Virus record (IMG/VR): IMGVR_UViG_3300042386_001233
Coordinates: 62,001 to 126,000 of that record
DNA length: 64,000 nucleotides
Strand: one strand, 5' to 3'
Origin: a virus
A program made the position numbers and the translations under genes. Positions 14,257 to 64,000 of this stretch are shown here, piece by piece. Below the pieces are notes generated by a model, which saw only the letters and a program-made list of their open reading frames with translations, had not been told where the DNA came from and made no database searches. How positions within the stretch are numbered: the first letter of the stretch is position 1; every line of letters starts with the position of its first letter.

Positions 14257-14284
14257 ATTATAGCAATGAGCCGTTGATTGTCAA
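14257..14284 (-). promoter_or_regulatory. Consensus sigma-70 promoter of ssb
   Basis: On the minus strand TTGACA (rc of 14279-14284) and TATAAT (rc of 14257-14262) are separated by 16 nt. Both hexamers match consensus exactly. The -35 box overlaps the TGA stop of the upstream polymerase gene, and the -10 box lies about 44 nt before the ssb ATG. Confidence 0.8.
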
Positions 14285-15906
14285 GTTATAGGCTCAAAAC
14301 ACTTTTCTACGATCAGACCGTCCTTGCTTTTGCTTTTATTTCCTGAAAAGACTAAAATATTACCTATAAATAAATAAGATCTATACTGGGAAAACTGTTC
14401 AGGAAAAAAGACCACAGAATCCAAAGTTCCGTATTGATCCTCTATGGTAACAAAAGCCATCTCTAGACCCGGATTCTTACCGCTCTTAGTTTTAGTAACA
14501 TTAACATTCCCAATCTCTCCTACTAAAACTATGTTTTCTTTTAGCAATGATGTCTTGAATGTTTTACAATTACAATTGGCCATAGTAATATCATAAACAT
14601 CAAGTTTAGAGCATGTGATACCAACCCCTAGTAAATCATTTTCTTGATCTGATAACCATTCTATTTTATCAATTAAGGAGTAAGGCGGATGTCCTAATGA
14701 TCTTATATAGTTCGCTATTGTTTCTTTTCGTCCTCTGATTAGTTTAGTTTCAGTATATAAAGCACTGAGAATGTCTATTATAGTACTATCTATCATGGTC
14801 TTTGAGTAAATATTAAATACCGTTTGCTCTTTTTTGGTTAATCCAGAACATATTTCATATTCGAAGAGCATCTCTGATCTATTTTTCTTATAGTAGTCAA
14901 ATGCGCCGCTACTAATCAAAGCCTTGGCTGCAACAGAGTTTATATTCATCAGAATATTGCCGACCATTTGTGGCCACGTTATATCATTAACATTCGTGTT
15001 CTTTGTTAGTTCTAATATTTTCTTGTATACAGACTGTCCTACCCCCTTTATGTCTGTTAAGCCAAAGTATATCTTTTGATTTTTCAATATGAAAAGCTCA
15101 TTTAAATTTCTAAAGTCAGGAATATGGACTTCTATATCCATCTCCATAGCATTTCTAACCAACTCTTTTATTTCCTGTTGAGGATCTATTTTGTCCTTAG
15201 CGAACCTGAGATATGATGCAAAAAAGATCTTGGGGAAATGTGCTTTAGCATACGCTGATAAATAAGCATTCATTGCATAGCTTATGGAATGACTAGCATT
15301 AAATAAGTATCTTTGTGATTTTTCAATCCATTCGAATATTTGTTCTGCTTCTGGTTCTGATAGTTTCCCAGTCTGCTTAGATCCTTCTATAAACTTCTTA
15401 CGGACTTTTGCCATTTTATCTGCTTGCTTTTTACCAATGGCTTTTCTTAGATCGTCTGCTTCTTGTAAATTGAAACCCGCTAGCTCTTTAGCTATAGACA
15501 TAGCCTGTTCTTGGTAAATCATTTCAGAATAGGTATGTTTTAAGATTGGCTCTAGTGCTGGATGGAAATAGTCAATAGACTCTAAGCCATTCTTTTTATC
15601 TATATAATGATTGCTTACGCTTTTACCATCTCTATGTGCCTCAAGACAACCCGGCCTAAGAATACTGATCAAGCCAGATAGCTGCTCAATATTTTGAGGC
15701 TTTAATTTCCGGGCCATGGTTTGTCCTAATCTGGACTCTAGCTGAAAACATCCTTTAGTATTGCCTTCGGATATCAGTTCCCATGTTTTATAGCATTCTA
15801 AACTAATGTTAGATAGTTTGGGAGAAAATTTTATTTTAGGAAATTCTCCACCCTTATCTAATACTTCAAATTTACATCCACAATCAAATACAAAAGAGTC
15901 TGACAT
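14281..15906 (-). CDS. DNA polymerase III alpha subunit, C-terminal half (fingers, helix-hairpin-helix, OB domain)
   Basis: 541 aa. From about residue 50 it follows bacterial DnaE immediately after the palm: TKGCFQLES, then ISILRPGCLE, YQEQAM, LRKAIGKK and FNASHSISYA (fingers). Later come the helix-hairpin-helix segment LTDIKGVGQSVYKKI and a C-terminal OB-fold (VLVGEIGNVNVTKTKSGK...). The N-terminal 50 residues, starting MSDSFVFDCGCKFEV, replace the missing palm and have no DnaE counterpart. The catalytic Asp residues lie in the separate gene at 16782-18650, so both chains must associate. GGAT precedes the ATG by 6 nt. Confidence 0.9.
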   Translation of the reverse strand: MSDSFVFDCGCKFEVLDKGGEFPKIKFSPKLSNISLECYKTWELISEGNTKGCFQLESRLGQTMARKLKPQNIEQLSGLISILRPGCLEAHRDGKSVSNHYIDKKNGLESIDYFHPALEPILKHTYSEMIYQEQAMSIAKELAGFNLQEADDLRKAIGKKQADKMAKVRKKFIEGSKQTGKLSEPEAEQIFEWIEKSQRYLFNASHSISYAMNAYLSAYAKAHFPKIFFASYLRFAKDKIDPQQEIKELVRNAMEMDIEVHIPDFRNLNELFILKNQKIYFGLTDIKGVGQSVYKKILELTKNTNVNDITWPQMVGNILMNINSVAAKALISSGAFDYYKKNRSEMLFEYEICSGLTKKEQTVFNIYSKTMIDSTIIDILSALYTETKLIRGRKETIANYIRSLGHPPYSLIDKIEWLSDQENDLLGVGITCSKLDVYDITMANCNCKTFKTSLLKENIVLVGEIGNVNVTKTKSGKNPGLEMAFVTIEDQYGTLDSVVFFPEQFSQYRSYLFIGNILVFSGNKSKSKDGLIVEKCFEPIT

Positions 15907-15908
15907 AT

Positions 15909-16607
15909 TTATCCAACGGTAAATGCTGATTTAAATTTTACTTTATTCGAAATATTACGATGTAGTCTAAGAAAACGAATTAAAATATCTGCCGTATCCT
16001 TAACGTCTTTAAGAGCATCGTGAGCGCCCTCTTTACTAATTCCTAGATAGTCTCTAAGGTTATCTAGTGTATAGTTTTTAAGTTCATTATTTCCTTCAAA
16101 CCAATAAAAAACCAAATTCATCAAATCTATAACATCTCTTGGATAAAAAAGATCTGAACGACCCTCTTTATTAAGATTGTCATATTTTTTACTAAGCCTC
16201 TCCATTATTCGTAAATCAAATCTGTTGATATTATACCCAGCAGCAATCGGAGCAGTAAAACATGATTTTTTACCGCTTGATCGTGAATGATACATATTCA
16301 GATATGATACAAATAATTGCCATCCATTTTCTTGCTTTTGATAGGACTTCCAGTCAGCTAAAATAGCATCTTTAGTACTAGACCTAACTTTCGCATGAAA
16401 GTCTAGAACATCAGAATCTCCATAAGCATAATCAATATTATTTTCTAAAGCTTCTGGCTTTATCGTAATATTAAATTCAGAATCTGGTATAACTTCTAGT
16501 CGATATGGATCGATCATTATAGCAGCAATCTGAACAGGACTACATGTGTCGGGATTAATCCCGTCGGTTTCAAGATCAAATACGCAAATTTTTTGTAAAT
16601 TAGCCAT
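15909..16607 (-). CDS. DEDDh 3'-5' exonuclease (DnaQ-like proofreading subunit)
   Basis: 232 aa. Exo I is CVFDLETDGINPDTC (D-x-E at about residues 10-12), Exo II is AAGYNINRFDLRIM, and Exo III is EGAHDALKDVKDTADI near residues 193-208 (H-x4-D), so the DEDDh active site looks complete. It would proofread for the split polymerase, between whose halves it is encoded. Its ATG overlaps the stop of the 59-aa gene, and its stop is 2 nt from the start of the C-terminal polymerase gene, so the four genes look co-translated. Confidence 0.9.
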   Translation of the reverse strand: MANLQKICVFDLETDGINPDTCSPVQIAAIMIDPYRLEVIPDSEFNITIKPEALENNIDYAYGDSDVLDFHAKVRSSTKDAILADWKSYQKQENGWQLFVSYLNMYHSRSSGKKSCFTAPIAAGYNINRFDLRIMERLSKKYDNLNKEGRSDLFYPRDVIDLMNLVFYWFEGNNELKNYTLDNLRDYLGISKEGAHDALKDVKDTADILIRFLRLHRNISNKVKFKSAFTVG

Positions 16608-16779
16608 TTACCACTACTACTGTTGAACCTGGGAAAAATGCCTTCTGGTTATTATCAGCTGCTACTTGACAGTTGATAGATCTGCAACAACTAACTCTGA
16701 CTTCTTCTGTCTTAACGTATTCAACATTGTTAACAGTGAATTTATCACCGAGCACTAATTCTTCAAATTTCTTTTCCAT
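16600..16779 (-). CDS. Small conserved-looking 59-aa protein between polymerase genes
   Basis: 59 aa. ATG at 16779 with GGAG 8 nt upstream; the stop at 16600-16602 overlaps the start of the exonuclease gene. The protein has a beta-rich N-terminus (LVLGDKFTVNNVEYVKTEEV), a VSCCRSINCQV motif with three Cys, and an FFPGSTVVVV end. The ribosome-binding site, the protein-like composition and coupling on both sides support translation. The function is unknown; by location it might assist the polymerase. Confidence 0.7.
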   Translation of the reverse strand: MEKKFEELVLGDKFTVNNVEYVKTEEVRVSCCRSINCQVAADNNQKAFFPGSTVVVVNG

Positions 16780-16781
16780 GA

Positions 16782-18650
16782 TTATTCTCCATATTTTAAT
16801 ATGTCTGATATTGTCATAATTTTATCCAACATAGCAACGCCCAGAATATCAAATTTAATTAAACCAAGACTTTCTAAATCCTGCATTTCCATACCGGCTA
16901 TGGCCTGTTTATTCTTTGTGTCATATACCATTGGACATACAGAACTAAGTTTTTTGCTACTAATAACTACACCAGCAGCATGTTTAGATTGATTTGACTT
17001 GGTTCCTTCCAGCCTGATTGCTTGCTCAAATCTTTTGGCCAGTGGTCCCTCCAGAACGTTGTCATTAGATATATAGCACCATTCCTTGAGTTTGTCAACA
17101 TTATTTTCTAAAGCCCAACGTATGATAGAAGCTTCTCCAGTATCTTCTTTCATTTCTTGCAATTCGTCTGCAATTTTTGCTTCGTCAGGAATACTTTTAG
17201 TAATTCTGTTCATTTCATCAAAGGATATATTACCATAAACTCTTAAAACTTCCTTTAAAGCTCCTCTACCTTTCATAGTATTAAAAGTTATCATTTGAGA
17301 TACTTTTTCTATTCCATATTTATCTTTAATATAGTCTATGACATATTGTCTTTTGGTAATTGGTACGTCCACATCAATATCTGGCATGGATATATGATCT
17401 GCAGTATTTCTTCCTTCGTTATAAAATCTCTCAAACAACAAATCATACTTAATAGGATTAATATCTGTAATACCGACAAGATATGATACCAAACATCCAG
17501 CAGCACTACCTCTACCCGGTCCTGGTAGCCATCCATTGGACTTAACATAATTGACAATATCTTGAATAATTAAAAAATAACTAGATAATCCAGCACCTTG
17601 TAGAACTTTTAATTCAAACTTGATACGATTAACATAGGTTTCGTGTTCAGACTCTGGAACTTTATCAGCAATCTTTTCTCTCCAGCCATCTCGACAAAGT
17701 TGTCTAAGATATTCGTCTGGATCAGCATTATTGGGACATTCAAACGTTGGAAGGGATGGCTTGCTCAATATATTGTATTCTTCACATAGCGAGTCTACAT
17801 ACAAAGTGTTTTCGATCTCTTCTTCTGTATGAATATCACTCATCTCTTCTGGAGATAGTATGTGATAATTATCTGACTGAAAAAAACAACTCAATGGAAC
17901 ATCTTGATTAGCTAATAGCTTTTTATTCACATCTACTAAAGTAGTCTTCAGATTGTTACATAGTAGAATTCTTTGGTCTATGGCGTCTTCTTTTGTGCAA
18001 TAATGAGCATCTGGTGTGCATATTACTTTTGTTTTTGTTTTACTGCCCAAAGAACGAACAAAATCTGTTATGTCTCTTTGTGCAGGATTGAGTGCTTGGT
18101 CCATAAGCTGTGCTTCTAAAAAGAAGTTCTCTTGACCAAATATTTCTTTCATTTTAGCTACAAAATCTATACCTATCTTATCCATTGTTCCAGACTGGTT
18201 TTCTAATAGATCTGGCAAGAGAGATCCCAAATGACCACAGAACCCTATAATATTCCCATCCAAAAAATTAGCTAGTCTGTCCATACTAATTCTTGGCTTA
18301 TGATAAAAATTTTCTTCTTTATTGGTTTCGGAAGCTATTGAGATTAAATTACGCCACCCCTTTAAATTCTTCGCCAATACTAAAAAATGACTAAGCTTGC
18401 TATTTTCTTTAGTTTTGATGTTAGAATCTTCATGGGAAATATAAAGTTCACAACCTAGTATTGGCTTTATATTTTGAGCTTTAAGAGCTTGGAAAAATTG
18501 AACACATCCAGAAATAGAACCATGATCAGTTAATGCACACGATTTAATCCCAGTGTTAGCACATCTTTGAGCAATCTGATGAGGCTTGCTGATACCGTCC
18601 AATAGGCTGTAGTGAGAGTGTGTATGCAATGCGGCATAAGTTTTAGTCAT
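16782..18650 (-). CDS. DNA polymerase III alpha subunit, N-terminal half (PHP and palm)
   Basis: 622 aa. The PHP domain starts at residue 8 (LHTHSHYSLLDG) and keeps the metal-ligand pattern: H9-x-H11, D42-H43, E68, H140, D214-x-H216. The palm has GPGRGSAAG at about 377-385, the catalytic pair D424-I-D426 in MPDIDVDVP, and the third Asp, D601, in LIKFDILGVAML. The protein then ends at residue 622, whereas an ordinary DnaE continues for 500 or more residues into fingers; that part is the separate gene at 14281-15906. All three polymerase aspartates are present. ATGA overlap with the upstream nuclease gene. Confidence 0.93.
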   Translation of the reverse strand: MTKTYAALHTHSHYSLLDGISKPHQIAQRCANTGIKSCALTDHGSISGCVQFFQALKAQNIKPILGCELYISHEDSNIKTKENSKLSHFLVLAKNLKGWRNLISIASETNKEENFYHKPRISMDRLANFLDGNIIGFCGHLGSLLPDLLENQSGTMDKIGIDFVAKMKEIFGQENFFLEAQLMDQALNPAQRDITDFVRSLGSKTKTKVICTPDAHYCTKEDAIDQRILLCNNLKTTLVDVNKKLLANQDVPLSCFFQSDNYHILSPEEMSDIHTEEEIENTLYVDSLCEEYNILSKPSLPTFECPNNADPDEYLRQLCRDGWREKIADKVPESEHETYVNRIKFELKVLQGAGLSSYFLIIQDIVNYVKSNGWLPGPGRGSAAGCLVSYLVGITDINPIKYDLLFERFYNEGRNTADHISMPDIDVDVPITKRQYVIDYIKDKYGIEKVSQMITFNTMKGRGALKEVLRVYGNISFDEMNRITKSIPDEAKIADELQEMKEDTGEASIIRWALENNVDKLKEWCYISNDNVLEGPLAKRFEQAIRLEGTKSNQSKHAAGVVISSKKLSSVCPMVYDTKNKQAIAGMEMQDLESLGLIKFDILGVAMLDKIMTISDILKYGE

Positions 18651-28879: not shown

Positions 28880-28900
28880 ATTATGCATTAATAATACACC
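28880..28900 (-). promoter_or_regulatory. GGTGTAT promoter-like motif upstream of phoH
   Basis: GGTGTAT (rc of 28894-28900) followed after 8 nt by CATAAT (rc of 28880-28885), 36 nt before the TTG start of phoH. It lies in one of the few noncoding gaps of this region. It is one of seven occurrences of the same arrangement in the window. Confidence 0.5.
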
Positions 28901-31678: not shown

Positions 31679-32143
31679 TTATACACCGTTAATATTTTTA
31701 ATCCAAGATAAATCTGGTCTTATCCTAACTATCTTAATGCCGCTCATTTGTACGAATAAATCAAATCTTTTTTTTGCATCTTCATCAAATAAGTGAGTAC
31801 CATGATCATCGGACATTACCACAGAAGTAACACCTTCTTGCCATAAAGCCATAATACAATCATTACAACTTTGACCAGTTACGTACGCTATACCATTATC
31901 TGGCCTAACAACACAATTACTTAAAGCATTTCGTTCTGCATGAATCATCCACGGATATTTTTCTGGGCGAGTCTTTGGAAGGTCATCATCATCTAATCCT
32001 CGGGGGTAACCATTGTAGCCCACGCCAAGAATTCTATTATTCTGATCTGTGATTACGCATCCGTGTTGGGTGTGAATATCATGACTTCTTTGAGACACCA
32101 CCTTTGACAAACCTAAAAAATAATCGGTCCAGATCGGTCTCAT
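31679..32143 (-). CDS. dCMP deaminase (zinc-dependent)
   Basis: 154 aa. The zinc ligands and catalytic Glu are H68-A-E70 and C93-x2-C96 (SCNDC). The front (DYFLGLSKVVSQRSHD, then GCVITD-N-RILGVGYNGYPRG) is the T4/eukaryote-type dCMP deaminase signature. It makes dUMP from dCMP, complementing the dUTPase for thymidylate supply. A neighbouring thymidylate synthase is not present in this window. Confidence 0.92.
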   Translation of the reverse strand: MRPIWTDYFLGLSKVVSQRSHDIHTQHGCVITDQNNRILGVGYNGYPRGLDDDDLPKTRPEKYPWMIHAERNALSNCVVRPDNGIAYVTGQSCNDCIMALWQEGVTSVVMSDDHGTHLFDEDAKKRFDLFVQMSGIKIVRIRPDLSWIKNINGV

Positions 32144-55160: not shown

Positions 55161-55179
55161 ATTATAGTATAAATACACC
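55161..55179 (-). promoter_or_regulatory. GGTGTAT promoter-like motif upstream of the small membrane proteins
   Basis: GGTGTAT (rc of 55173-55179), a 6-nt spacer, then TATAAT (rc of 55161-55166), 27 nt before the ATG at 55134. It faces away from the plus-strand copy at 55204, so the two form a divergent pair in the gap 55135-55281. Confidence 0.6.
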
Positions 55180-55203
55180 AATTATAATTTAGTTTGTTTT
55201 TTA

Positions 55204-55223
55204 GGTGTATCCTTTATTATGAT
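55204..55223 (+). promoter_or_regulatory. Plus-strand GGTGTAT promoter-like motif with overlapping inverted repeat
   Basis: GGTGTAT at 55204-55210 is followed after 7 nt by TATGAT (55218-55223). A -35-like TTGTTT lies at 55194-55199, 18 nt before the same -10 box. An inverted repeat TGTATC (55206-55211) / GATACA (55221-55226) with a 9-nt loop covers the promoter and could be an operator. It would serve the Cys-rich gene at 55282. Confidence 0.5.
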
Positions 55224-55281
55224 ACATTCAACCCTCTAATTGGGGGTAACTTCTAATGTAAATTTTAAAAAGGCTAACTTT

Positions 55282-55452
55282 ATGACATATGATAATGATG
55301 GACCGATTTATAGTGTTTTGAATGGGAAACCGTGTTATTGCTGCAATTCGTGGGGGACCTGCGACAATTTTGGAGAGGCTATGTGTGCCAATATTGATGG
55401 CATATGCTACGGCGACTTCGAAACTTGTTGGGCCAATTTAGGAGATTGCTAA
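55282..55452 (+). CDS. Orphan eight-cysteine small protein on the opposite strand
   Basis: 56 aa from the ATG at 55282 with AAGG about 9 nt upstream; a TTG at 55240 would give a longer form. Eight cysteines (CYCC, then C-x4 to C-x7 spacings to the end), seven of them in the last 39 residues, and no Lys-rich tail suggest a disulfide-rich or metal-binding peptide. It is read against all its neighbours from a promoter-like motif of its own, and its stop overlaps the end of the convergent frame. A moron-like gene is possible. Confidence 0.6.
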   Translation: MTYDNDGPIYSVLNGKPCYCCNSWGTCDNFGEAMCANIDGICYGDFETCWANLGDC

Positions 55453-55534
55453 AATCTATCCTGGATATAATCTTTGATTATGTCGTAGATAAATCCGCCC
55501 CATAGTATTATTACTCCTGTGGCGGTCAGTTTTC

Positions 55535-56458
55535 TTATAGATAATCTTCGAATCCGTAGCTCGGTAGTTTTTGTAAAGGAAAGCCATCAAAACCACTAAA
55601 AGCATAAGAGCCATTAGCAGATAGCATTCCAGCAGCAACATCAGCGTGGATTAAAAACGACCCTTCTGGAATAGGACCCCATTCTGGATGTCCACCATCA
55701 TTCCATTTACCCCAGCTATTTTGAACGAGAAAAGCTGGTTCACTACCAGTATCATCACAAGCTATCCAGGCCATACAATGACCCCAGTTACCAGATGTTC
55801 TAGCAAATCCCTTTTTATCTCTAGTATTGCTAAATCCATAATTAGAGCATACAGCTAATCCATAACCATTAGCTAAAGCATCACGGGCTTCTTCTACTGT
55901 TCGTATTAATGAAGCAGTCTTGATCTGGTGATCGTTAGAGAGATCTAGTACTTTATCTGGAAGACCTCTACCGCCCCAGCCCGCCCCTAAATTACCATTA
56001 TATTTACTGAAATCTACAAAACCATAATTCTTTCTCACTACAAGACCACCAACCTTACTAACAAATTCAGCTGCTCTAGCACAACTCATACCCTGTCCAC
56101 TAAACCCTCTATATCCATAGATAGCTTCTGTTGCACCCCTTGCTATCCAATCCTCTCTCTCATTATGTATATCTATTTCTACAGCTCGGGTTACATCACA
56201 AGCATTTCGCGTTCCGTGACTAACACAATCTCCAGTAGTTTGTCTTTCATTATAAGGATGTTTATCAAACTTTAACACACTTTTGTATGGTGTTGAAAGC
56301 TTACCTTTGCCACTACCACTAATTTTTTTACTAGCATCTCCAAATAATGGATACTTGGAAGTTTCCATTAAGTGATCAAACACATGCTGTTCAAATAAAC
56401 AACCGCTAAAACCCTTACGATAATTGTCATATAATTCTTTTGGAGTATATCGTGGCAT
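55535..56458 (-). CDS. Papain-like (C1A-type) cysteine peptidase
   Basis: 307 aa. The oxyanion Gln and catalytic Cys lie in RQTTGDCVSHG near residues 72-82, the catalytic His in WGHCMAWIA near 220-228, and the Asn in FLVQNSWGKWN near 243-253 (N-S-W-G), so the catalytic triad of papain-type enzymes is complete. No signal peptide is present. In phages such enzymes could mature virion proteins or act in host lysis as peptide-cleaving factors; a holin-like gene lies 1.3 kb upstream. The four neighbouring upstream genes are small membrane-anchored or helical proteins. Confidence 0.88.
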   Translation of the reverse strand: MPRYTPKELYDNYRKGFSGCLFEQHVFDHLMETSKYPLFGDASKKISGSGKGKLSTPYKSVLKFDKHPYNERQTTGDCVSHGTRNACDVTRAVEIDIHNEREDWIARGATEAIYGYRGFSGQGMSCARAAEFVSKVGGLVVRKNYGFVDFSKYNGNLGAGWGGRGLPDKVLDLSNDHQIKTASLIRTVEEARDALANGYGLAVCSNYGFSNTRDKKGFARTSGNWGHCMAWIACDDTGSEPAFLVQNSWGKWNDGGHPEWGPIPEGSFLIHADVAAGMLSANGSYAFSGFDGFPLQKLPSYGFEDYL

Positions 56459-56949
56459 TATTTTGATCCCATGTTACAAGCCCAAGCTAAAGCATTAAGA
56501 CCTTCTGCAGCTTTAACTCGTAGCTCTTTGGATAGTAGAATATGATCATCGCCTATAGCTGCAACAACAACTTCTTTAGCTTCTTTTGCTAAATCTGGAT
56601 ATTTGCCTTTTATGTCTAGTTTAAGCATCACACCAGCTAAGCTATTTGCTTGACGAATTTCTTCAGTACTCTTAACTACTTCGTCTTCTCCATCAAGCTC
56701 CACAAGCTTTGCCAAATCAATGTAAAGATCTCTAAGTCTTTTAGCATCGTTTTTAGCCCCTGCTTCTTTTAGAAGAACAACAACATCATCTGCTTCTTTT
56801 TTGACGGCTGGGTCTGTTGGTTCTGGTAGCTCTAAAACATCAACTACTGCTGGTTTGTTTGGACCAAGAATATTTGAAAAGTCTGGCTTAAGCAAACCAA
56901 CAACAATTAATAGACCAGCTAATACTAGTAGTACGTTTTTTTGATTCAT
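56458..56949 (-). CDS. Membrane-anchored helical protein
   Basis: 163 aa. A single N-terminal hydrophobic segment (VLLVLAGLLIVVGLL) anchors a long helical and acidic domain with LLKEAGAKNDAKRLRDLYIDLAKLVEL. No enzyme motif. The stop overlaps the peptidase start by 1 nt and the start overlaps the upstream gene by 4 nt. Possibly part of a membrane complex with the peptidase. Confidence 0.6.
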   Translation of the reverse strand: MNQKNVLLVLAGLLIVVGLLKPDFSNILGPNKPAVVDVLELPEPTDPAVKKEADDVVVLLKEAGAKNDAKRLRDLYIDLAKLVELDGEDEVVKSTEEIRQANSLAGVMLKLDIKGKYPDLAKEAKEVVVAAIGDDHILLSKELRVKAAEGLNALAWACNMGSK

Positions 56950-57338
56950 GATACCTTATCCTCATTTTGTTTACTGCATACATTGGGACTTAAATATGGG
57001 AACATCTGGTCTGCTACCTTAACAGCTTCAGAACATCCGCTCTGAACAGCAAGATCACGAGTTTGCTTCCATGAAACTACTAGCTTAAAAAATGTATCTT
57101 CTGAATCTGTTTTCTTTGGAACAACAACAGGAGAAACAGCAGGAACATTTACTACTGGGAGAGAAGTATTGTCTGTTGCTCCTCTGAGTTTTTCAATCAT
57201 AGAACCTAATAGCTTTTGTACTGGATTAAGCTTATCCTTAAACATAACCCATAGTACGATACCAACACCAGCATATAGAGCCAAGTCCATTGTGCTCAAT
57301 CTACTACTAAACTCTTGGAAACTTTCTGTAAAATTCAT
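56946..57338 (-). CDS. Membrane-anchored protein with Pro/Val-rich linker
   Basis: 130 aa. A transmembrane-like segment (MDLALYAGVGIVLWVMF) near residue 20 is followed by a helix, a P-V-V-x-P linker and a C-terminal domain with two Cys (GCSEAVKVADQMFPYLSPNVC). It might be exposed on the periplasmic side. No family is recognised. Confidence 0.6.
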   Translation of the reverse strand: MNFTESFQEFSSRLSTMDLALYAGVGIVLWVMFKDKLNPVQKLLGSMIEKLRGATDNTSLPVVNVPAVSPVVVPKKTDSEDTFFKLVVSWKQTRDLAVQSGCSEAVKVADQMFPYLSPNVCSKQNEDKVS

Positions 57339-57349
57339 TTTAGCCTCTC

Positions 57350-57775
57350 TTATTTATCTGAAACTGATGGAGTTTTATCTACGTCCGGAGTAATTACAAC
57401 ACTTGGATCAATGAAAATGCCATTATTCCTAAAAGTAATGACAAAAGCATCAATTGAAGAACTTACTAAAAGCATTAACAATTGCTTGACATACTTCTGT
57501 ATAATAGGCTGTAAAAGTTTTGGCACAAATGGAAAATTCACTAAAGTAAAAACTTGATCATAAAAGTTGCTAATCATAGTCATAGCAAGTGTTTTTTTAT
57601 CAACCCCTTTAAGAGAGGGGTTATTATCTTCTATCTTTTGAATTACTTCGGCTGTAGCCAATTGCAATACGTTCCATGCTTGTGGCATTGCTACTGCTTT
57701 GGCGTTTTTAAGTATTTCTTTAGCTTTAGCTACTAAATTTCCAAGATCATTTACTGGCAGGTTTTGGTTTTCCAT
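57350..57775 (-). CDS. Hypothetical helical protein of the lysis/membrane block
   Basis: 141 aa. The order is an amphipathic front (NLVAKAKEILKNAKAVAMPQAWNVL), a central helix with ALAMTMISNFYDQVFTLVNFPFVP (partly hydrophobic) and a second hydrophobic stretch (LLQPIIQKYVKQLLMLLVSSSI). The pattern resembles phage membrane-associated proteins of unknown function that are found beside holins. It overlaps the holin-like gene by 29 nt. Confidence 0.65.
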   Translation of the reverse strand: MENQNLPVNDLGNLVAKAKEILKNAKAVAMPQAWNVLQLATAEVIQKIEDNNPSLKGVDKKTLAMTMISNFYDQVFTLVNFPFVPKLLQPIIQKYVKQLLMLLVSSSIDAFVITFRNNGIFIDPSVVITPDVDKTPSVSDK

Positions 57776-58079
57776 TTGTTTTTCTCTTTTTTCTTACTGT
57801 TGCTGGTTTGTCGTTCTTTTTGTTTGCTTCTTTTCTTTCTTCTGGAGTGGCTGTACTCCACCAAGTCTTTTTTAGGTCTGTTCTTCCTTTTACATATTTA
57901 AATAATACAGTTAGCTGTCCAATAATAAGGATTGTTGCTTCTAGACCTCTTGTAGTTTCTTGAATTAGGTCTTCTTTTTGAGAATTTTCACCTATAAGAC
58001 CCATAAGATATAATCCGCTAAAAATAAAACTAACTACTGTAAACCAAAATTCTGAACTTTTCCAACCGGGCTTAATCAT
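57747..58079 (-). CDS. Putative holin
   Basis: 110 aa. Two hydrophobic segments (FWFTVVSFIFSGLYLMGLI and ATILIIGQLTVLFKYV) separated by a charged stretch are followed by a strongly basic tail (RKKRKTNGKPKPASK), the layout of class II/III holins. It would permeabilise the inner membrane for lysis. It is the first gene after the GGTGTAT motif at 58110-58128. Confidence 0.65.
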   Translation of the reverse strand: MIKPGWKSSEFWFTVVSFIFSGLYLMGLIGENSQKEDLIQETTRGLEATILIIGQLTVLFKYVKGRTDLKKTWWSTATPEERKEANKKNDKPATVRKKRKTNGKPKPASK

Positions 58080-58109
58080 AATAGTTTATCTCCTATGTTA
58101 AAGACTGCT

Positions 58110-58128
58110 ATTATATACTATATACACC
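58110..58128 (-). promoter_or_regulatory. GGTGTAT promoter-like motif upstream of the holin-like gene
   Basis: GGTGTAT (rc of 58122-58128), 6 nt, then TATAAT (rc of 58110-58115), 30 nt before the holin ATG. It has the best -10 of the series together with the copy at 55161. Confidence 0.6.
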
Positions 58129-58129
58129 G

Positions 58130-58816
58130 CTACAAGATCTTATCTGATTTAGCAATATTCAAATCCCACCACAATGGCTGCATATTAGTATAGTGAAAAC
58201 AAATTTTTTGCTGTTCTGGATCAGAAAGGTCAAAACTGGCGCATGGAATTATGTGGTCAATATGCCATCCTTTGGGGCCATAGGCTTCCCAGTTCAGTCT
58301 AGGATCTTTATAAAATTGTGATTCCAGATGTTGTTTAAACTCTTCAATAGAACAACCCAATAATTCTGTTGTAGCTTGAGATTTATAGTATCCTTTAATA
58401 CTAGCTACTATTCTTTTTTGTAAAATACTTTTTAACCTATAAGAAAGATCAGAATAATATTTTTTATGCTGCCACTTATTTGCACTTTGTCTAATTTTTT
58501 CTTTATTATTAATCCTATAATTTTTCATATACTCGGGCTTATTTAGTCTTTGTTCTTTCTGATAAGCTAGCTTAGTTTCTCGTTGTCTTGAATATCTTTG
58601 TTTATCTATTGTTTTATTATGCTCTTTATTTTTAATTTTATAGTCTTTAGATTTTTTTATTCTATCTTCTCTATTTTTAATATATCTATTGTGCTGATTA
58701 GCCTTATCACAACTTTTACACTGAGCTAGTTTGCCATATTTACCAGTTTTACTATTCGGAAAATCATTAAGTTGTTTTGTAATATTACATTGATTACATG
58801 TTTTGGTTTGAGTCAT
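58130..58816 (-). CDS. HNH endonuclease, homing type
   Basis: 228 aa from the ATG at 58816. The N-terminus has a Cys cluster (CNQC...CKSC) with KTG-Y-R/G-K-L-A like free-standing homing nucleases; the middle is an extremely basic and Asn-rich region. The C-terminus has the HNH-like core: WEAYGPKGWHIDHIIPCASF (DH) and NMQPLWWDLNIAKSDK (N and H/K). It is situated between the tail-type gene and the holin-like gene and looks like an insertion. Confidence 0.8.
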   Translation of the reverse strand: MTQTKTCNQCNITKQLNDFPNSKTGKYGKLAQCKSCDKANQHNRYIKNREDRIKKSKDYKIKNKEHNKTIDKQRYSRQRETKLAYQKEQRLNKPEYMKNYRINNKEKIRQSANKWQHKKYYSDLSYRLKSILQKRIVASIKGYYKSQATTELLGCSIEEFKQHLESQFYKDPRLNWEAYGPKGWHIDHIIPCASFDLSDPEQQKICFHYTNMQPLWWDLNIAKSDKIL

Positions 58817-58834
58817 AATAAACACGGTTTAGTA

Positions 58835-59707
58835 TTATGCGTTTTGATCAACAAATCCGAAACAAACCGTACAATAATTTTCACTAACAGTATAATTGAA
58901 AGTTACAGTAGTTACAGTTCCATCTATTCGAATTATATTATATCCTTCTTCTCCGGTAAACTGAGAATATTGTGTAGCATTTACTGGATTTTGATATGTT
59001 GTAAGTGTTTCCCATATTGGAGTAAATGATGCTGATACTTGTACAGGAACTGGGGTACCTCCTTGACCAACGCTAGCAAATGCAACCAACGCGTCGGTAA
59101 CAGGTTGACTAAAAGTTGCAGTAAAAATACCAGATTGAGTATTCTTAATTTGAGTTCCACTAAGTGGTACTCCGTAAGCTTCGGGGAAGGTTGTGCCACC
59201 AACCATACCATCGTGGGCATCCATACCTCCGCCAGTTTGTGTTATTGAGATTGTGATATTGTTTTGACCAATTCCAGAAGCGGAGGTTGAAGTAACAGAG
59301 CTGATATTCATCCACTGAAACCCAGAACTACCAAAACTACAAAACTTCTCACCAGAATAAGGAGCTGGCCAGTTTACTAACCAAGGATAGCTTGCATAAC
59401 TATATGCTCTCGTAATCTCCCCTTCTGCTCCAATATAAAGCCATACTCCTGTCTCGTATCGGACAGTTTCGTCTCCATAGGTATAGGTCTCACGACCATA
59501 AGGAGCATATCCAATAGGAGCAAGAGTTCTGTCACCAGAAACCCATCCTATCATTTTGACACTAGCAACTGAATCTGTACAACTTTCTGATGTACTTCCA
59601 AATACTAGATTCTCGCCAAGGAATATTTTAGAAACACTATTATCTCCTAATTTAATAGAAGTTATGTTAGAGTTACTTAAAAATATATCACTATTTACTG
59701 TTGGCAT
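58835..59707 (-). CDS. Putative tail or virion surface protein
   Basis: 290 aa, beta-rich and Gly/Thr/Ser-rich, with repeated short hydrophobic strands (SNITSIKLGDNSVSKIFLG; ITISITQTGGGMDAHDG; IFTATFSQPVTDALVAFAS). No membrane segment. The front motif (F-L-G-x-x-S-I-x-x-I-x-L-G-x-x-x-V-x-K-I-Y/F-x-G) is typical of phage tail-fibre and appendage proteins. The role is inferred from this pattern and its place among late genes. Confidence 0.65.
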   Translation of the reverse strand: MPTVNSDIFLSNSNITSIKLGDNSVSKIFLGENLVFGSTSESCTDSVASVKMIGWVSGDRTLAPIGYAPYGRETYTYGDETVRYETGVWLYIGAEGEITRAYSYASYPWLVNWPAPYSGEKFCSFGSSGFQWMNISSVTSTSASGIGQNNITISITQTGGGMDAHDGMVGGTTFPEAYGVPLSGTQIKNTQSGIFTATFSQPVTDALVAFASVGQGGTPVPVQVSASFTPIWETLTTYQNPVNATQYSQFTGEEGYNIIRIDGTVTTVTFNYTVSENYCTVCFGFVDQNA

Positions 59708-59719
59708 ACAAATTTATCC

Positions 59720-59980
59720 TTAGCCATTAACTATGTATAGTGTATTAGTATCTTTTGTAGCAAGAGCATCGTAGTTGCTTTGAGAAATACTAATCATATT
59801 TGTTATACGAATAGAATTATTAACTAAGCTAGTATTGCTTTGAACTAAACCAGAATGAAGAACAGATACTGGGACTTTTTTTGTTAAAGCAGACCCTGAT
59901 GGATCGTCCATAATTAAAAATATATCATCACTAGTCAGAGCACTAGCTGCTGGAAATTCATTAATACGTTGTATACTCAT
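59720..59980 (-). CDS. Small virion-type protein
   Basis: 86 aa. The sequence RINEFPAASALTSDDIFLIMDDPSGSALTKKVPVSVL resembles the short beta segments at the front of tail-fibre and tail-appendage proteins of phages (D-x-F-L-x-x-D). It ends with ALATKDTNTLYIVNG, another fibre-like motif. It could be a tail-tip or fibre accessory. It is adjacent to the next small gene without a gap. Confidence 0.6.
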   Translation of the reverse strand: MSIQRINEFPAASALTSDDIFLIMDDPSGSALTKKVPVSVLHSGLVQSNTSLVNNSIRITNMISISQSNYDALATKDTNTLYIVNG

Positions 59981-60193
59981 TTAACCACCTATTACTGTTT
60001 GGTCGCCGACTAATTGAACAAAAATACCATTATAGAATCTATTATCATATTTTGTTTCAATATCACTAATTGTTGGAGTGTTTTTAACATACGTGTCGAT
60101 TGTTGAGTATTCTCCGGTAACTGTTGTTGTAACAACGGTTGTTCCGTTTTTTATTTGATTAGCACTAATTGCTTTATTTATATCGTTTGCCAT
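59981..60193 (-). CDS. Small hypothetical virion-region protein
   Basis: 70 aa. Mixed with polar beta-like stretches (TTVVTTTVTGEYSTIDTYV). No motif is recognised. It directly follows the coiled-coil gene and precedes the fibre-like small gene, all in one transcription unit headed by the GGTGTAT motif at 60552. Confidence 0.55.
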   Translation of the reverse strand: MANDINKAISANQIKNGTTVVTTTVTGEYSTIDTYVKNTPTISDIETKYDNRFYNGIFVQLVGDQTVIGG

Positions 60194-60196
60194 AAA

Positions 60197-60514
60197 TTAC
60201 CTTTCTATTCTGTCTTCTAAAGTTTCTAAAGTTTTGCCAAGCATTGCTATTTGAATTTTCAGTTCTGTCATAACTTCTGTATTTCTTTGAAGAGCCAGCG
60301 CGAAAGCTGCTTGACTTTCTTTGTTAGAAGCTAACCTTTCCATAATAAATTGTTTATCATGAAGGTATGGAGATTGTGTTTCTATCATAACCAAAACCTC
60401 TGATTTAGTTGCCATATTTCTACCAATAGCCACCCAAAATCCAACCATTGTTACTATAATTCCAATACTTGTTGTGGCTATGTTCTCCCAGAAATGAATA
60501 ATGGTTTCAGACAT
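60197..60514 (-). CDS. Membrane-anchored coiled-coil protein
   Basis: 105 aa. An N-terminal hydrophobic segment (TTSIGIIVTMVGFWVAI) precedes a helical, coiled-coil C-terminus (LKIQIAMLGKTLETLEDRIER). The layout resembles XhlA-type hemolysin-associated and phage lysis-accessory proteins, but the similarity is not decisive. It is the first gene behind the promoter-like motif. Confidence 0.55.
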   Translation of the reverse strand: MSETIIHFWENIATTSIGIIVTMVGFWVAIGRNMATKSEVLVMIETQSPYLHDKQFIMERLASNKESQAAFALALQRNTEVMTELKIQIAMLGKTLETLEDRIER

Positions 60515-60551
60515 TATGGAAGCCTTTTATAAGATTTTTAGAAAGTGTTAT

Positions 60552-60570
60552 TCTTTAGATATAATACACC
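60552..60570 (-). promoter_or_regulatory. GGTGTAT promoter-like motif downstream of a terminator
   Basis: GGTGTAT (rc of 60564-60570) followed after 6 nt by TAAAGA (rc of 60552-60557), 38 nt before the ATG at 60514. It lies 3 nt after the T-run of the Rho-independent terminator, the arrangement expected for a promoter that starts a new transcript. Confidence 0.6.
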
Positions 60571-60573
60571 TAT

Positions 60574-60605
60574 AAAAAAAGAACCAGAAAGATGATTCCT
60601 GGTTC
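60574..60605 (-). terminator. Rho-independent terminator after the virion protein gene
   Basis: On the minus strand GAACCAG (rc of 60599-60605) pairs perfectly with CTGGTTC (rc of 60581-60587) around an 11-nt loop, and is followed directly by a run of seven T (rc of 60574-60580). The upstream gene ends at 60635, about 30 nt before the hairpin. Confidence 0.85.
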
Positions 60606-60634
60606 TCTTCTTATTGGTAGAATTTAATTAACTA

Positions 60635-61177
60635 TTAGCCATTTTTAGCTGGATAGTTTTTTGCAATAGCAACAGGAGCGCCACTCTTGAATCTCATAGA
60701 ACCGGGAACGCTTCTGGTGGGACTAGCAGCATTATCTGTACCTGGGGTTTCTGTAACAGCTGTTGGGGCAGTTGTGAACCTACCTGTGTAAAGACTAAAG
60801 TAGCCAGCTCTGATAGCGGTTGCGGTGCCGGGTGATCTGTAGCTTTCTCTCTTGTTAATGCTTCTTAATTGACCAGGAACATTAGCTGTAGTTGATAAAG
60901 CACTACTGGCAACTCCACCAAGCTCTGAGGTTACTTTGGCAGTTATGGGCTTGACATGATCGTGGGCGATAGTTCCTTCAGAAATAGCCTTGTTTGTGTA
61001 ATCTCCATCAATAACTGTTGAAGCGAAAACACCAACATTTACTTGTCCTAGTGAACTATTCTCTAAGACAGAGGATACTGTGCCGACTCTTTTAGCTGTA
61101 CCGTGATTATTATTTGTAGAGCTACCACTCCAGTATGTGCCTGTTGAGGCTGCTCCACCTTGTTGAATTGTAGCCAT
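60635..61177 (-). CDS. Putative structural (head or tail decoration) protein
   Basis: 180 aa from the ATG at 61177, which has GGAG about 9 nt upstream. It is rich in Gly, Thr, Ala and Ser, without membrane segments, with short motifs such as GQVNVGVFASTVIDGDYTNK and GYFSLYTGRFTTAPT. This composition resembles decoration or major structural proteins. It has its own GGTGTAT motif upstream and terminator downstream, so a strong separate late unit is likely, as expected for an abundant virion protein. Confidence 0.7.
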   Translation of the reverse strand: MATIQQGGAASTGTYWSGSSTNNNHGTAKRVGTVSSVLENSSLGQVNVGVFASTVIDGDYTNKAISEGTIAHDHVKPITAKVTSELGGVASSALSTTANVPGQLRSINKRESYRSPGTATAIRAGYFSLYTGRFTTAPTAVTETPGTDNAASPTRSVPGSMRFKSGAPVAIAKNYPAKNG

Positions 61178-61221
61178 TTTATAAAACTCCATGAAGATTT
61201 AAGGAAAGAAACAAGTATATA

Positions 61222-61240
61222 CTTATTATTCGTATACACC
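61222..61240 (-). promoter_or_regulatory. GGTGTAT promoter-like motif upstream of the structural gene
   Basis: GGTGTAT (rc of 61234-61240), 6 nt, then AATAAG (rc of 61222-61227; TAATAA is one base earlier), 45 nt before the ATG at 61177. The -10 match is weaker than at 58110. Confidence 0.55.
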
Positions 61241-61253
61241 TAAAAACAGAGAA

Positions 61254-61895
61254 TTAGCTATTTATTAGCTGTAAACCGTTTAGGGAATTGATTCTTAAAC
61301 CGTATAATTGGTTATTTTTAACCATTTTTAGATGATTACTATTCCACAAATTACCATTACAGATAATATTGATATTTGGAACTTTCTTATTAATTAGAGC
61401 AGAAGCTATGATATTGTCGCCAATATCGTCTAAAGAGTATCCAGTTGAGGGATAGATTGTTTTAACATTAAAGTCATATAAGATTTGGGCAACTTTATAG
61501 AGCAGCTCGTAGGAGTATTGCCTATATTCTAAAACGTATCTTAGTTCAACATTTAGGGAAGAACATAGATTAGTTAATTGTTTAATGTCATCCCTAAACT
61601 TATCATACTTCCTGTTGCACAATAGCTGTGCTGGGCAAACTGCCTCAATTATATCAACATTATTTTTTAAACAAAAATCAACTACTGATAGTCTGGATTT
61701 TATATCTAACACACCCATTGGATAATCTATCGGGCAAGAAATCTTTGCAGCATTGTTTACTAAAGACTTTACAAGTCTGGCATATGGCGGAAGTACAGAT
61801 ATTGTCTGCACATTGTGTTTTAAAGCTTCTGTTAAGTTGCCTTGAATTTCGGCATCATTAGAAGCGATATCATAATATGAATATTCTAATAGCAT
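61254..61895 (-). CDS. DeoC-like aldolase-fold protein, Schiff-base Lys apparently missing
   Basis: 213 aa. TIM-barrel-type strands line up with deoxyribose-phosphate aldolases: TISVLPPYARLVKSLV, KISCPIDYPMGVLDIKSRL, DIIEAV and LRYVLEYRQYSYELL. The key lysine lies in the K-T-S-T-G motif of DeoC; here the segment reads KTIYPSTGYSLDD, so Pro stands where Lys is expected. It is probably catalytically altered or has a structural role. It is next to the ClpP-like gene in the late region, sharing one base with it. Confidence 0.65.
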   Translation of the reverse strand: MLLEYSYYDIASNDAEIQGNLTEALKHNVQTISVLPPYARLVKSLVNNAAKISCPIDYPMGVLDIKSRLSVVDFCLKNNVDIIEAVCPAQLLCNRKYDKFRDDIKQLTNLCSSLNVELRYVLEYRQYSYELLYKVAQILYDFNVKTIYPSTGYSLDDIGDNIIASALINKKVPNINIICNGNLWNSNHLKMVKNNQLYGLRINSLNGLQLINS

Positions 61896-62566
61896 TATTT
61901 TTTAAGTGAGTCTATATTGGGATATTTTTTAGTGCCAAGAATACCATCGGCAAAGCCGTAATATACTGCTTCTTCAGCCGTTAATATCCAATCGCATTTA
62001 TTAGCAAGTTGTGAGACTATGTGTTTTTTTGCCATCATTTTTTTCCAATTTTTCTCTTTAGCTATCATACTATTCATACACCTGTCAGTAAAAATATCAA
62101 CCATCTTATCACACTCGTTTTCGTTCCATCTAATGCCAGCCGCAGCAGCTTTGCTGTGTTCCCCATCCATACTAAATGACCCATAATGAATCATAACATG
62201 TGTATTTGGCATCAATATTCTAAGGTCGGCAGCTTGTAATAAAACACTACTAGAAGATTCTGCTTTAGCATAAGCGAGGATGATAACTTTAGCTTTTGAT
62301 GCCCTGACAGCATCATACATACCTAGGCAGTCTTGCCAGTCTCCTCCTGGTAAATGCATATGAACTAAAATTGGTTCTAGAGATAATAGGTTTAAGTACC
62401 TGAGATTTTTTTCAAGTACTATAGCAGACCTATAGTCAACACCACCTTCTTCACTATCTCCTAAATATGAATGTAGATATATTTCTCTGTTTTTTGTATC
62501 TATATTATATGAGTGTATTGATTGTAATTCGCTTTCAAGTTCAGTAAATGATTTGGCTGTTGACAT
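61895..62566 (-). CDS. ClpP-like serine protease
   Basis: 223 aa. VHMHLPGGDWQDCLGMYDAV near residues 68-87 is the P-G-G strand and helix of ClpP/SppA folds. IILAYAKAESSSSVLLQAADLRIL holds the nucleophile Ser (about 103-106), TAHVMIHYG-type NTHVMIHYGSF carries the catalytic His, and the third residue (Asp/Asn) is expected in the later CDKMVDIFTD region. As in other phages it could be a capsid-maturation protease or processing enzyme. Its context of structural genes supports a late role. Confidence 0.75.
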   Translation of the reverse strand: MSTAKSFTELESELQSIHSYNIDTKNREIYLHSYLGDSEEGGVDYRSAIVLEKNLRYLNLLSLEPILVHMHLPGGDWQDCLGMYDAVRASKAKVIILAYAKAESSSSVLLQAADLRILMPNTHVMIHYGSFSMDGEHSKAAAAGIRWNENECDKMVDIFTDRCMNSMIAKEKNWKKMMAKKHIVSQLANKCDWILTAEEAVYYGFADGILGTKKYPNIDSLKK

Positions 62567-62568
62567 TG

Positions 62569-63000
62569 TTATGATAGCTCCGAGTATACTCTCTTATTTA
62601 TATCTCTCATTACCGAAGAATCATCAAAAGCTTTACCAACAGCAATTCGGAATCTGTATCTAGTAAAAATATCTAGGGTTTCAACCCCATCGGTTTTTTC
62701 GATAACATCAGCAACTTTATGAGTAATATCAAAGTTAGTATGCCCAATCCAAAAATTAAAAATCTTTCCACTCATAGTATTATCAGTGACTGGTATAATG
62801 CCCATTGGCGTAGCAATAACTTTTACTCTTTGTGTTGTATTAATTATTTTATTCTCTTGCTCCTCATCATTAATGTTTTCAGTAGTACCATCTGATTCTT
62901 GTTCTTCATAATCTGCAAGATATGGATCATGCTCCAGCTCTTCTGCGTCATCAGATCCAAATGGATCAAGCCACTTTTGCCATGAGATAAGATTGATCAT
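62569..63000 (-). CDS. Hypothetical protein of the ClpP/DeoC-like unit
   Basis: 143 aa. The first 60 residues are very acidic and probably disordered. From GIIPVTDNTMSGKIFNFWIGHTNFDITH onward a compact domain follows (VIEKTDGVETLDIFTRYRFRIAVGKAF). No family is recognised. It starts a transcription unit with the GGTGTAT motif 40 nt upstream and ends 2 nt before the ClpP-like start. Confidence 0.65.
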   Translation of the reverse strand: MINLISWQKWLDPFGSDDAEELEHDPYLADYEEQESDGTTENINDEEQENKIINTTQRVKVIATPMGIIPVTDNTMSGKIFNFWIGHTNFDITHKVADVIEKTDGVETLDIFTRYRFRIAVGKAFDDSSVMRDINKRVYSELS

Positions 63001-63039
63001 ATAATTGATACTTTGTTTAAACTCTTATTTTTTTTAGAG

Positions 63040-63066
63040 ATACCATGTATAATACACCCATGGTAT
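63040..63066 (-). promoter_or_regulatory. GGTGTAT promoter-like motif inside an inverted repeat
   Basis: GGTGTAT (rc of 63052-63058) and a weak TGGTAT box (rc of 63040-63045) lie within a perfect 8-bp inverted repeat ATACCATG (63040-63047) / CATGGTAT (63059-63066). The motif occupies the 11-nt loop, which fits an operator or a structured 5' end. It precedes the ATG at 63000. Confidence 0.5.
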
Positions 63067-63096
63067 AGTAATAAGAAATTGGCCGACAAACAACAG

Positions 63097-63513: not shown

Positions 63514-63829
63514 TTGGTGGTAGTATATCGGTGTTAAGATCTATGGTTCTAGTATAGCTATTTATTATAGTAGTTTCATAATTAACAAAACAAATATAAT
63601 ATATATCAAGCTGAGAAGTTATGATAATGTCAACTAATTTAGGATTTGTTCCAGAGGTTTCTTTTATACATCTATTCAACAGCATTGATAGAAGCTCATT
63701 AATGTCTTGATTAGGCTCTAGTTCAACAGAAGGCAGTCTTAGAGTATAATCAGCTAATGAGAGTATCTCATATCTGTTCTTGGAATGAATAAAAATTGGA
63801 ATAATAAGATTAAGCTGTGCATTTATCAT
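63479..63829 (-). CDS. Hypothetical protein following the sigma-like gene
   Basis: 116 aa from the ATG at 63829 (MINAQLNLIIPIFIH), which overlaps the end of the sigma-like gene by 20 nt; a longer frame starting at 63904 would lie inside that gene. It consists of beta and helical stretches (IIITSQLDIYYICFVNYETTII) without a recognised motif. Function unknown. Confidence 0.65.
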   Translation of the reverse strand: MINAQLNLIIPIFIHSKNRYEILSLADYTLRLPSVELEPNQDINELLSMLLNRCIKETSGTNPKLVDIIITSQLDIYYICFVNYETTIINSYTRTIDLNTDILPPNATRTLSLLAK

Positions 63830-64000
63830 AAGATCGAATAATATCCAGTGCTCTCTTAATGTTTTGCCTAATTGCTTCTCTAGAGACACCAAACTTTTTA
63901 CCAATATATGACAAAGTATGATTTTCTAGATAATACATTTTAATCTGTATTTTCTGTTTGTCAGATAAAATGCTATTATTCAGTAGCTGATCGATGCTTG
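63810..64000 (-). CDS. Sigma-70 region-4-like DNA-binding protein (5'-partial)
   Basis: The frame runs in from the right edge and ends at a TAA at 63810-63812. The visible 62 residues contain ILSDKQKIQIKMYYLEN, then HTLSYIGKKFGVSREAIRQN and IKRALDIIRSY, which is the region 4.2 helix-turn-helix of a sigma-70-type factor (L-x-x-I-G-x-x-x-G-V-S-R-E-x-I-R-Q-x-x-x-x-A-L). It may be a phage sigma factor that drives the late motifs, or another region-4-like regulator. The rest of the gene is outside the window. Confidence 0.75.
   Translation of the reverse strand, partial: SIDQLLNNSILSDKQKIQIKMYYLENHTLSYIGKKFGVSREAIRQNIKRALDIIRSYDKCTA

What the first reader, a model, noticed from the sequence alone, without database searches (positions are those of the whole stretch)
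55161..63066. Repeated GGTGTAT element in front of late genes: candidate phage-specific promoter
GGTGTAT followed after about 6-8 nt by a -10-like box (TATAAT at 58110 and 55161, weaker at others) occurs upstream of starts at 28844, 55134, 55282 (plus strand), 58079, 60514, 61177 and 63000. All seven copies are in noncoding DNA and point toward the next gene, and one sits directly behind a Rho-independent terminator. A 7-mer like this would occur a few times by chance in 64 kb, but not with this placement. The element is distinct from the TTGACA/TATAAT promoter of ssb. A sigma-70 region-4-like protein at the right edge could be its reader.
Basis: seen in the sequence. Interest (0 to 1): 0.75.

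Follow-up and report, generated by a model that had tools for sequence, protein, structure and literature searches.

The report
Phage-specific single-element promoter, GGTGTAT
A short DNA word, GGTGTAT, in front of many genes of this large uncultivated phage and its relatives behaves like an on-switch (promoter), probably for one of the phage's own sigma factors, and the phages seem to purge backward copies of it from their genes.

Summary
In relatives, unbiased searches recover the word as the top noncoding hexamer or 7-mer and top EM motif in two non-overlapping locus sets. Noncoding copies near a start point towards it 95 times, away 0 times. Only 1 of 55 sites lies closer than 27 nt to the start codon (17.5 expected). 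26 of 32 diverged PhoH upstream regions keep it. Inside genes the backward word (TACACC) ranks 2nd-3rd most avoided of 4096 hexamers, while the forward word is near expectation; this favours a DNA-level promoter over an RNA element. Best reading: a single-block -10-type element, GGTG followed by an A/T-rich hexamer. Which one reads it, the start sites and 'late' timing are not shown. New variant of a known kind.

The parts
28894..28900 (-). GGTGTAT element (GGTGTATTATT), 56 nt before the TTG start (28844) of the PhoH gene
   Evidence: kept in 26 of 32 diverged PhoH upstream regions
31681..31687 (-).
   Evidence: conservation not tested
55173..55179 (-). GGTGTAT element, 45 nt before start 55134
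   Evidence: kept in relatives L052, L057-L059, L061, L068-L070, L072
55204..55210 (+). GGTGTAT copy on the plus strand, 78 nt before a 56-aa ORF (55282); weakest of the set
   Evidence: absent from L052 at this place
58122..58128 (-). GGTGTAT element, 49 nt before start 58079
60564..60570 (-). GGTGTAT element, 56 nt before start 60514
   Evidence: kept in L053 with the preceding T-run
60574..60606 (-). Hairpin plus T-run (terminator-like) directly upstream of the 60564 element
   Evidence: read directly (AGAACCAG...CTGGTTCT then T7; loop of 11 nt, outside the limits of the scan)
61234..61240 (-). GGTGTAT element, 63 nt before start 61177
   Evidence: kept in L053, L055, L056
63052..63058 (-). 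GGTGTAT element, 58 nt before start 63000 (gene upstream of the ClpP-type head protease)
   Evidence: kept as GGTGTAT or GGGGTAT in many relatives
63810..64000 (-). 3' end of sigma-A (199 aa; continues to genome position 126409, outside the window); candidate reader 1, with region 4

Best explanation
GGTGTAT is the core of a phage-specific promoter class in a lineage of large uncultivated phages. It is a single-block element at the -10 position: GGTG (first base sometimes A, third sometimes G) immediately followed by an A/T-rich TATWWW hexamer, with no -35 box; by inference transcription starts a few nt after the block. Host RNA polymerase core carrying a phage-encoded sigma factor reads it, after the first genes have been transcribed from ordinary TTGACA/TATAAT promoters clustered elsewhere in the genome. 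Of two sigma-like proteins, the region-2-only one near the terminase (sigma-B, outside the window) is slightly the more likely reader; the region 2 + region 4 one at the window edge (sigma-A) is the alternative. Shown by computation: the element, its placement, direction, conservation, lack of a -35 and of a separate TATAAT, avoidance of backward copies, a separate host-like promoter class, two sigma-like genes. Inferred: that it starts transcription, which sigma reads it, the start position, the timing.
For: (a) Unbiased discovery: GTGTAT and GGTGTA are the two most enriched noncoding 6-mers around sigma-A (1e-45, 1e-42; Shine-Dalgarno AAAGGA 1e-18); GGTGTAT is the top 7-mer in 38 loci filtered to share no sequence with those (43 noncoding, 25 coding, 1e-48). 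EM finds GGTGTATatt.t in 37% of near-relative upstream regions (LL 148 vs 39 shuffled), aTTTGG.GTATt in far relatives (45 vs 34).A.tGGTGTATT in the second set (142 vs 46). (b) Orientation 44/0, 39/0, 12/0 sense/antisense. (c) 1 of 55 sites closer than 27 nt to the start codon, 17.5 expected. (d) Kept in 26 of 32 diverged PhoH upstream regions; AGTGTA or GGTGTA follows the terminase stop codon, and GGTGTA recurs in the 3' end of the next gene ahead of the following start, in most relatives. (e) TACACC is rank 3, 3 and 2 of 4096 hexamers most avoided in genes against synonymous-codon shuffles (45 vs 192, 19 vs 121, own 15 vs 53); forward GGTGTA 145 vs 166, 65 vs 59, 22 vs 35; unrelated phages 6 vs 12 (T4) and 18 vs 22 (Mel-JY01). 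(f) No -35 and no separate TATAAT; GGGGTATTAT and GGGGTATAAT variants place TAT at the start of a -10 hexamer. (g) Host-like promoters cluster at 159-216 kb as a different class. (h) Two sigma-like genes, both present in long contigs of relatives.
Against: No RNA data. Orthologous sites are not independent, so k-mer P values overstate significance. In the own genome alone the motif is weak (EM LL 31 vs 24 shuffled). Gene calls come from a simple script. Some relatives (L073, L076) show no noncoding GGTGTA near sigma-A. Three PhoH contigs gave no sigma-A hit, though they are fragments. The codon shuffle does not preserve codon-pair context. The sigma-B fold model is of low confidence (pLDDT 65) with weak matches (E 0.06 or worse, though almost all to sigma factors).
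Confidence: 0.72

Rival explanations
1. It is a promoter read by the host's own primary sigma factor as an extended -10 promoter; no phage sigma is involved.
For: TG sits just upstream of a -10-like hexamer, and some early promoters of this genome also have GTG directly before the hexamer (GTGTAGAAT). Extended -10 promoters can work without a -35 (general knowledge).
Against: The hexamer is the poorly conserved part and GGTG the invariant part, the reverse of a sigma-70 promoter; TG abuts the hexamer rather than standing one base away; a clear TTGACA/TATAAT class exists separately; the phage encodes two sigma-like proteins.
Confidence: 0.15
2. It is the binding site of a phage activator or other DNA-binding protein that helps RNA polymerase, not the core promoter itself.
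For: An oriented conserved word upstream of genes would look the same; the genome has other candidate DNA-binding proteins (for example the D5-like regulator next to sigma-B).
Against: No core promoter (-35 or -10) is enriched near it on either side, and some sites leave only about 16-20 nt between the first G and the ribosome-binding site.
Confidence: 0.07
3. It is an RNA-level element in the 5' untranslated region (translation enhancer, processing or stability site).
For: It lies in 5' leader positions of many genes, in the sense direction only.
Against: Backward copies are avoided inside genes while forward copies are not: an RNA element would select on the transcribed strand. Distance to the start codon is variable (27-63 nt in 54 of 57).
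Confidence: 0.04
4. Chance: a 7-mer that happens to lie in front of several genes.
For: The raw genome-wide count is not unusual.
Against: Placement P 7e-8 in the window, top motif in two independent locus sets, orientation 95/0.
Confidence: 0.02

Closest known systems
phiEco32 middle/late promoters read by phage sigma gp36 (tAATGTAtA; PMC8948821, PMC4331800)
   Same: Single conserved element, no -35, a shared TGTAT core, phage-encoded sigma, host-type promoters for early genes; gp36 lacks region 4, as sigma-B seems to here.
   Different: GG instead of AA before TGTAT; homology of sigma-A or sigma-B to gp36 was not tested directly; start sites (6-8 bp downstream there) are unmapped here.
T4 late promoters read by gp55 (8-bp TATA box; PMC2988020)
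   Same: Single box at the -10 position followed by A/T-rich DNA, no -35, small phage sigma with similarity to region 2 only.
   Different: GGTG is the conserved part rather than the TATA sequence; the phage is not T4-like (PolIII-alpha-type polymerase); dependence on gp33/gp45 not shown.
Phage 7-11 late promoters read by gp47 (GTAAtg-16-aCTA; PMC8948821)
   Same: Phage-encoded sigma with its own promoter class in front of non-early genes; gp47 has region 4, like sigma-A.
   Different: Bipartite; no second element was found here.
Bacterial extended -10 promoters (sigma-70)
   Same: TG just upstream of an A/T-rich -10 hexamer; -35 dispensable.
   Different: TG abuts the hexamer, GG precedes it, and the hexamer is poorly conserved.

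Membership tests
Single-element promoter of a phage sigma (phiEco32 gp36 / T4 gp55 kind) | One conserved block, no -35 element | tested here: met
   (TTGACA-like 13 vs 14.3 expected); no informative upstream column
Single-element promoter of a phage sigma (phiEco32 gp36 / T4 gp55 kind) | Repeated, oriented, in front of genes | tested here: met
Single-element promoter of a phage sigma (phiEco32 gp36 / T4 gp55 kind) | Genes behind it are middle or late | not testable with these tools
   Only inferred from gene functions and from the separate TTGACA class
Single-element promoter of a phage sigma (phiEco32 gp36 / T4 gp55 kind) | Phage encodes a sigma without region 4 | tested here: inconclusive
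   sigma-B: only Sigma70_r2 found (21.9 bits vs cut-off 24 for the protein; 24.0 in the genome search), no region 4 hit, but C-terminal helices of unknown nature; sigma-A has region 4
Single-element promoter of a phage sigma (phiEco32 gp36 / T4 gp55 kind) | Transcription starts 6-9 nt after the block | not testable with these tools
   Only indirect: minimum 27 nt from element to start codon at all but one site
T4 late promoter | TATA-box consensus of gp55 | tested here: not met
   EM matrix GGTGTATatt
T4 late promoter | gp33 and sliding clamp gp45 as co-activators | tested here: inconclusive
   PF02916 not found in the genome, but the control genomes were silent too; gp33 not searched
phiEco32 gp36 promoter | tAATGTAtA consensus | tested here: not met
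   GG precedes TGTAT
sigma-70 -35/-10 promoter | TTGACA, 16-18 nt, TATAAT | tested here: not met
   this class exists elsewhere in the genome
   8 seen vs 8.6 expected at spacing 5-9

The most novel reading that the evidence does not exclude
A previously undescribed sigma/promoter pair that runs much of the genome in a lineage of large uncultivated phages, in which the GGTG flank rather than the A/T hexamer carries the specificity, read by a Cys-rich region-2-only sigma (sigma-B), with a second phage sigma (sigma-A) serving another step, and with directional purging of antisense copies from coding DNA.
Probability: 0.4. Interest if true: 0.72.

Novelty: new variant of a known kind. Interest (0 to 1): 0.6.

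Why it matters
No isolated phage close to this lineage was found in the collection searched, so its promoter logic must be read from sequence. The one-sided avoidance of backward copies inside genes is a sequence-only test of promoter function that could be used on other uncultivated phages. The authors of the 7-11 study predicted that further phage sigma/promoter pairs would turn up (PMC8948821); this is a candidate.

Tried and rejected
Raw 7-mer count: uninformative genome-wide (32 vs 27 for the reversed word). TATAAT box 6-8 nt downstream and -35 upstream: both at chance. EM on the own genome only: finds the TTGACA class first, GGTGTAtt weakly on the late side. A T4-like phage: rejected, the DNA polymerase matches phage PolIII-alpha-type records and no close isolate was found. 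Sigma-A as the only sigma: rejected after a second region-2 protein turned up. Phage-encoded RNA polymerase: RpoB family absent with working controls; T7-type polymerase not found, but its control was silent. Profile comparison of sigma-A with sigma-B: no similarity. Residual motif search in upstream regions lacking the element: only a TTG.C (-35-like) motif, no bipartite class for the other sigma. The first EM script timed out. Literature search for GGTGTAT with promoter: no paper.
Full report
Setting. The window is bases 62001-126000 of a 243,821-nt virus record: an AT-rich phage (33% GC) with a ribonucleotide reductase, dCMP deaminase, PhoH, DnaB, a DNA polymerase, a ClpP-type head protease, an rIIA-like gene and a large terminase. 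No close isolate was found: best terminase match 26%, head protease 28%, sigma-A two short partial hits, sigma-B none. The polymerase matches phage PolIII-alpha-type records, not T4 gp43.

The observation. Noncoding DNA is 3.35% of the window and 0.21 copies would be expected there. Genome-wide the word is not over-represented as such.

Conservation. A search with the sigma at the right edge brought 36 loci from related uncultivated phages, most at 59-100% identity. In 24 of them, counted on the sigma gene's strand, GTGTAT and GGTGTA were the two most enriched noncoding hexamers of all, ahead of Shine-Dalgarno words. A second set, fetched with PhoH and a structural-region gene and filtered to share no sequence with the first (38 loci), again gave GGTGTAT as the top 7-mer. 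EM motif discovery recovered the element in both sets and a GG[GT]GTAT version in far relatives. Twenty-six of 32 nonidentical PhoH upstream regions keep it while their surroundings differ. Behind the terminase stop codon most relatives carry AGTGTA or GGTGTA, and GGTGTA recurs in the 3' end of the following gene, ahead of the next start; the own genome has AGTGTAT behind its terminase.

Anatomy. The matrix is G G T G T A T and then A/T-rich. There is nothing at -35, and TATAAT-like boxes 5-9 nt downstream are at chance. The distance from the first G to the start codon is 27-63 nt for 54 of 57 nonredundant sites; in a separate count only 1 of 55 sites lies closer than 27 nt against 17.5 expected. 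Some sites have the ribosome-binding site only about 16-20 nt after the first G (for example GGTGTATTATTATTTAAAGGAGCTTTTATG), which leaves room for a start site only if the -10 hexamer is the element's own TATTAT. Variants GGGGTATTAT and GGGGTATAAT agree with that reading.

Direction. Noncoding copies within 130 nt of a start point at it 95 times and never away. Inside genes, against synonymous-codon shuffles, the backward hexamer TACACC ranks 3rd, 3rd and 2nd most avoided of 4096 in three data sets (45 vs 192, 19 vs 121, 15 vs 53), while forward GGTGTA is near expectation. Over the three relative sets together it is 64 vs 322; control hexamers of similar make-up give ratios of 0.63-1.57, and two unrelated AT-rich phages give 6 vs 12 (T4) and 18 vs 22 (Mel-JY01) (T4's count is too small to exclude mild avoidance). 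An RNA element would not be selected against on the untranscribed strand; a promoter that fires antisense would.

Two promoter classes. TTGACA-N16/18-TATAAT promoters (23 strict noncoding cases, all between 159 and 216 kb) form a separate class, also seen on the left of sigma-B in relatives. GGTGTAT is enriched elsewhere, though a few copies also lie in the 165-225 kb region.

Who reads it. The right-edge protein (sigma-A, 199 aa) has Sigma70_r4 (E 6e-11), a strongly conserved N-terminal domain and a sigma-like fold. A search of the rest of the genome found a second sigma-like gene (sigma-B, 225 aa, genome 227096-227773) with region 2 only, a Cys-rich stretch and an almost invariant region-2 segment; four ORFs lie between it and the terminase. 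Several long contigs of relatives carry both. By precedent, sigmas without region 4 (phiEco32 gp36, T4 gp55) read single-block promoters and one with region 4 (7-11 gp47) reads a bipartite one (PMC8948821, PMC2988020). That tilts towards sigma-B, but it is an argument by analogy and nothing computed here decides it.

Timing. Genes behind the element include PhoH, unidentified small proteins, the gene before the head protease, and genes behind the terminase. Middle or late use is suggested; timing could not be tested.

Limits. Genes were called by a simple script; relatives are fragments; enrichment P values treat orthologous sites as independent; the codon-shuffle test keeps each gene's codons but not codon-pair context; the sigma-B model has low confidence.

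Noticed in passing
L047:264-11470 (G000:C1:205264-216470), also parts of L046: At least 11 copies of an 80-90 nt GC-rich noncoding repeat (framework CGTAAGT..ATAAGGACTTACGTC..CGGCCCGCCCG..CGTAAGTC) with nested inverted TAAGTCCTT words, on both strands; ACTTACG is also the top noncoding 7-mer around sigma-B in relatives (69 noncoding, 43 coding). Function unknown.
   Followed up: partly
G000:C1:159241-215652: 23 strict TTGACA-type promoters; CGATA occurs 14 times in their spacers at a variable offset (8-14 nt before the -10), unexplained.
   Followed up: partly
G000:C1:227096-227773 (L180:3096-3773): Second sigma-like gene with region 2 only and a Cys-rich segment; 144 stretches in the viral collection encode a relative, yet no match in the collection of phage records.
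   Followed up: yes
window 63064-63071 (-) and the same place in L052-L081: TTACTATA is conserved a few nt upstream of (or in place of) GGTGTAT before the gene starting at 63000: possibly a second, host-like -10 box.
   Followed up: no
window 14281-18650 (-): DNA polymerase split into two ORFs (16782-18650 and 14281-15906) with a DNA-polymerase-exonuclease-like ORF between them.
   Followed up: no
coding DNA of the relatives: Palindromes such as CTCGAG, CGATCG, GTCGAC and CTGCAG are strongly avoided (CTCGAG 0 vs 46 expected), probably host restriction pressure.
   Followed up: no
window 58130-58759 (-): Endonuclease-VII-like ORF among the genes of this cluster with a GGTGTAT element directly behind it.
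   Followed up: no
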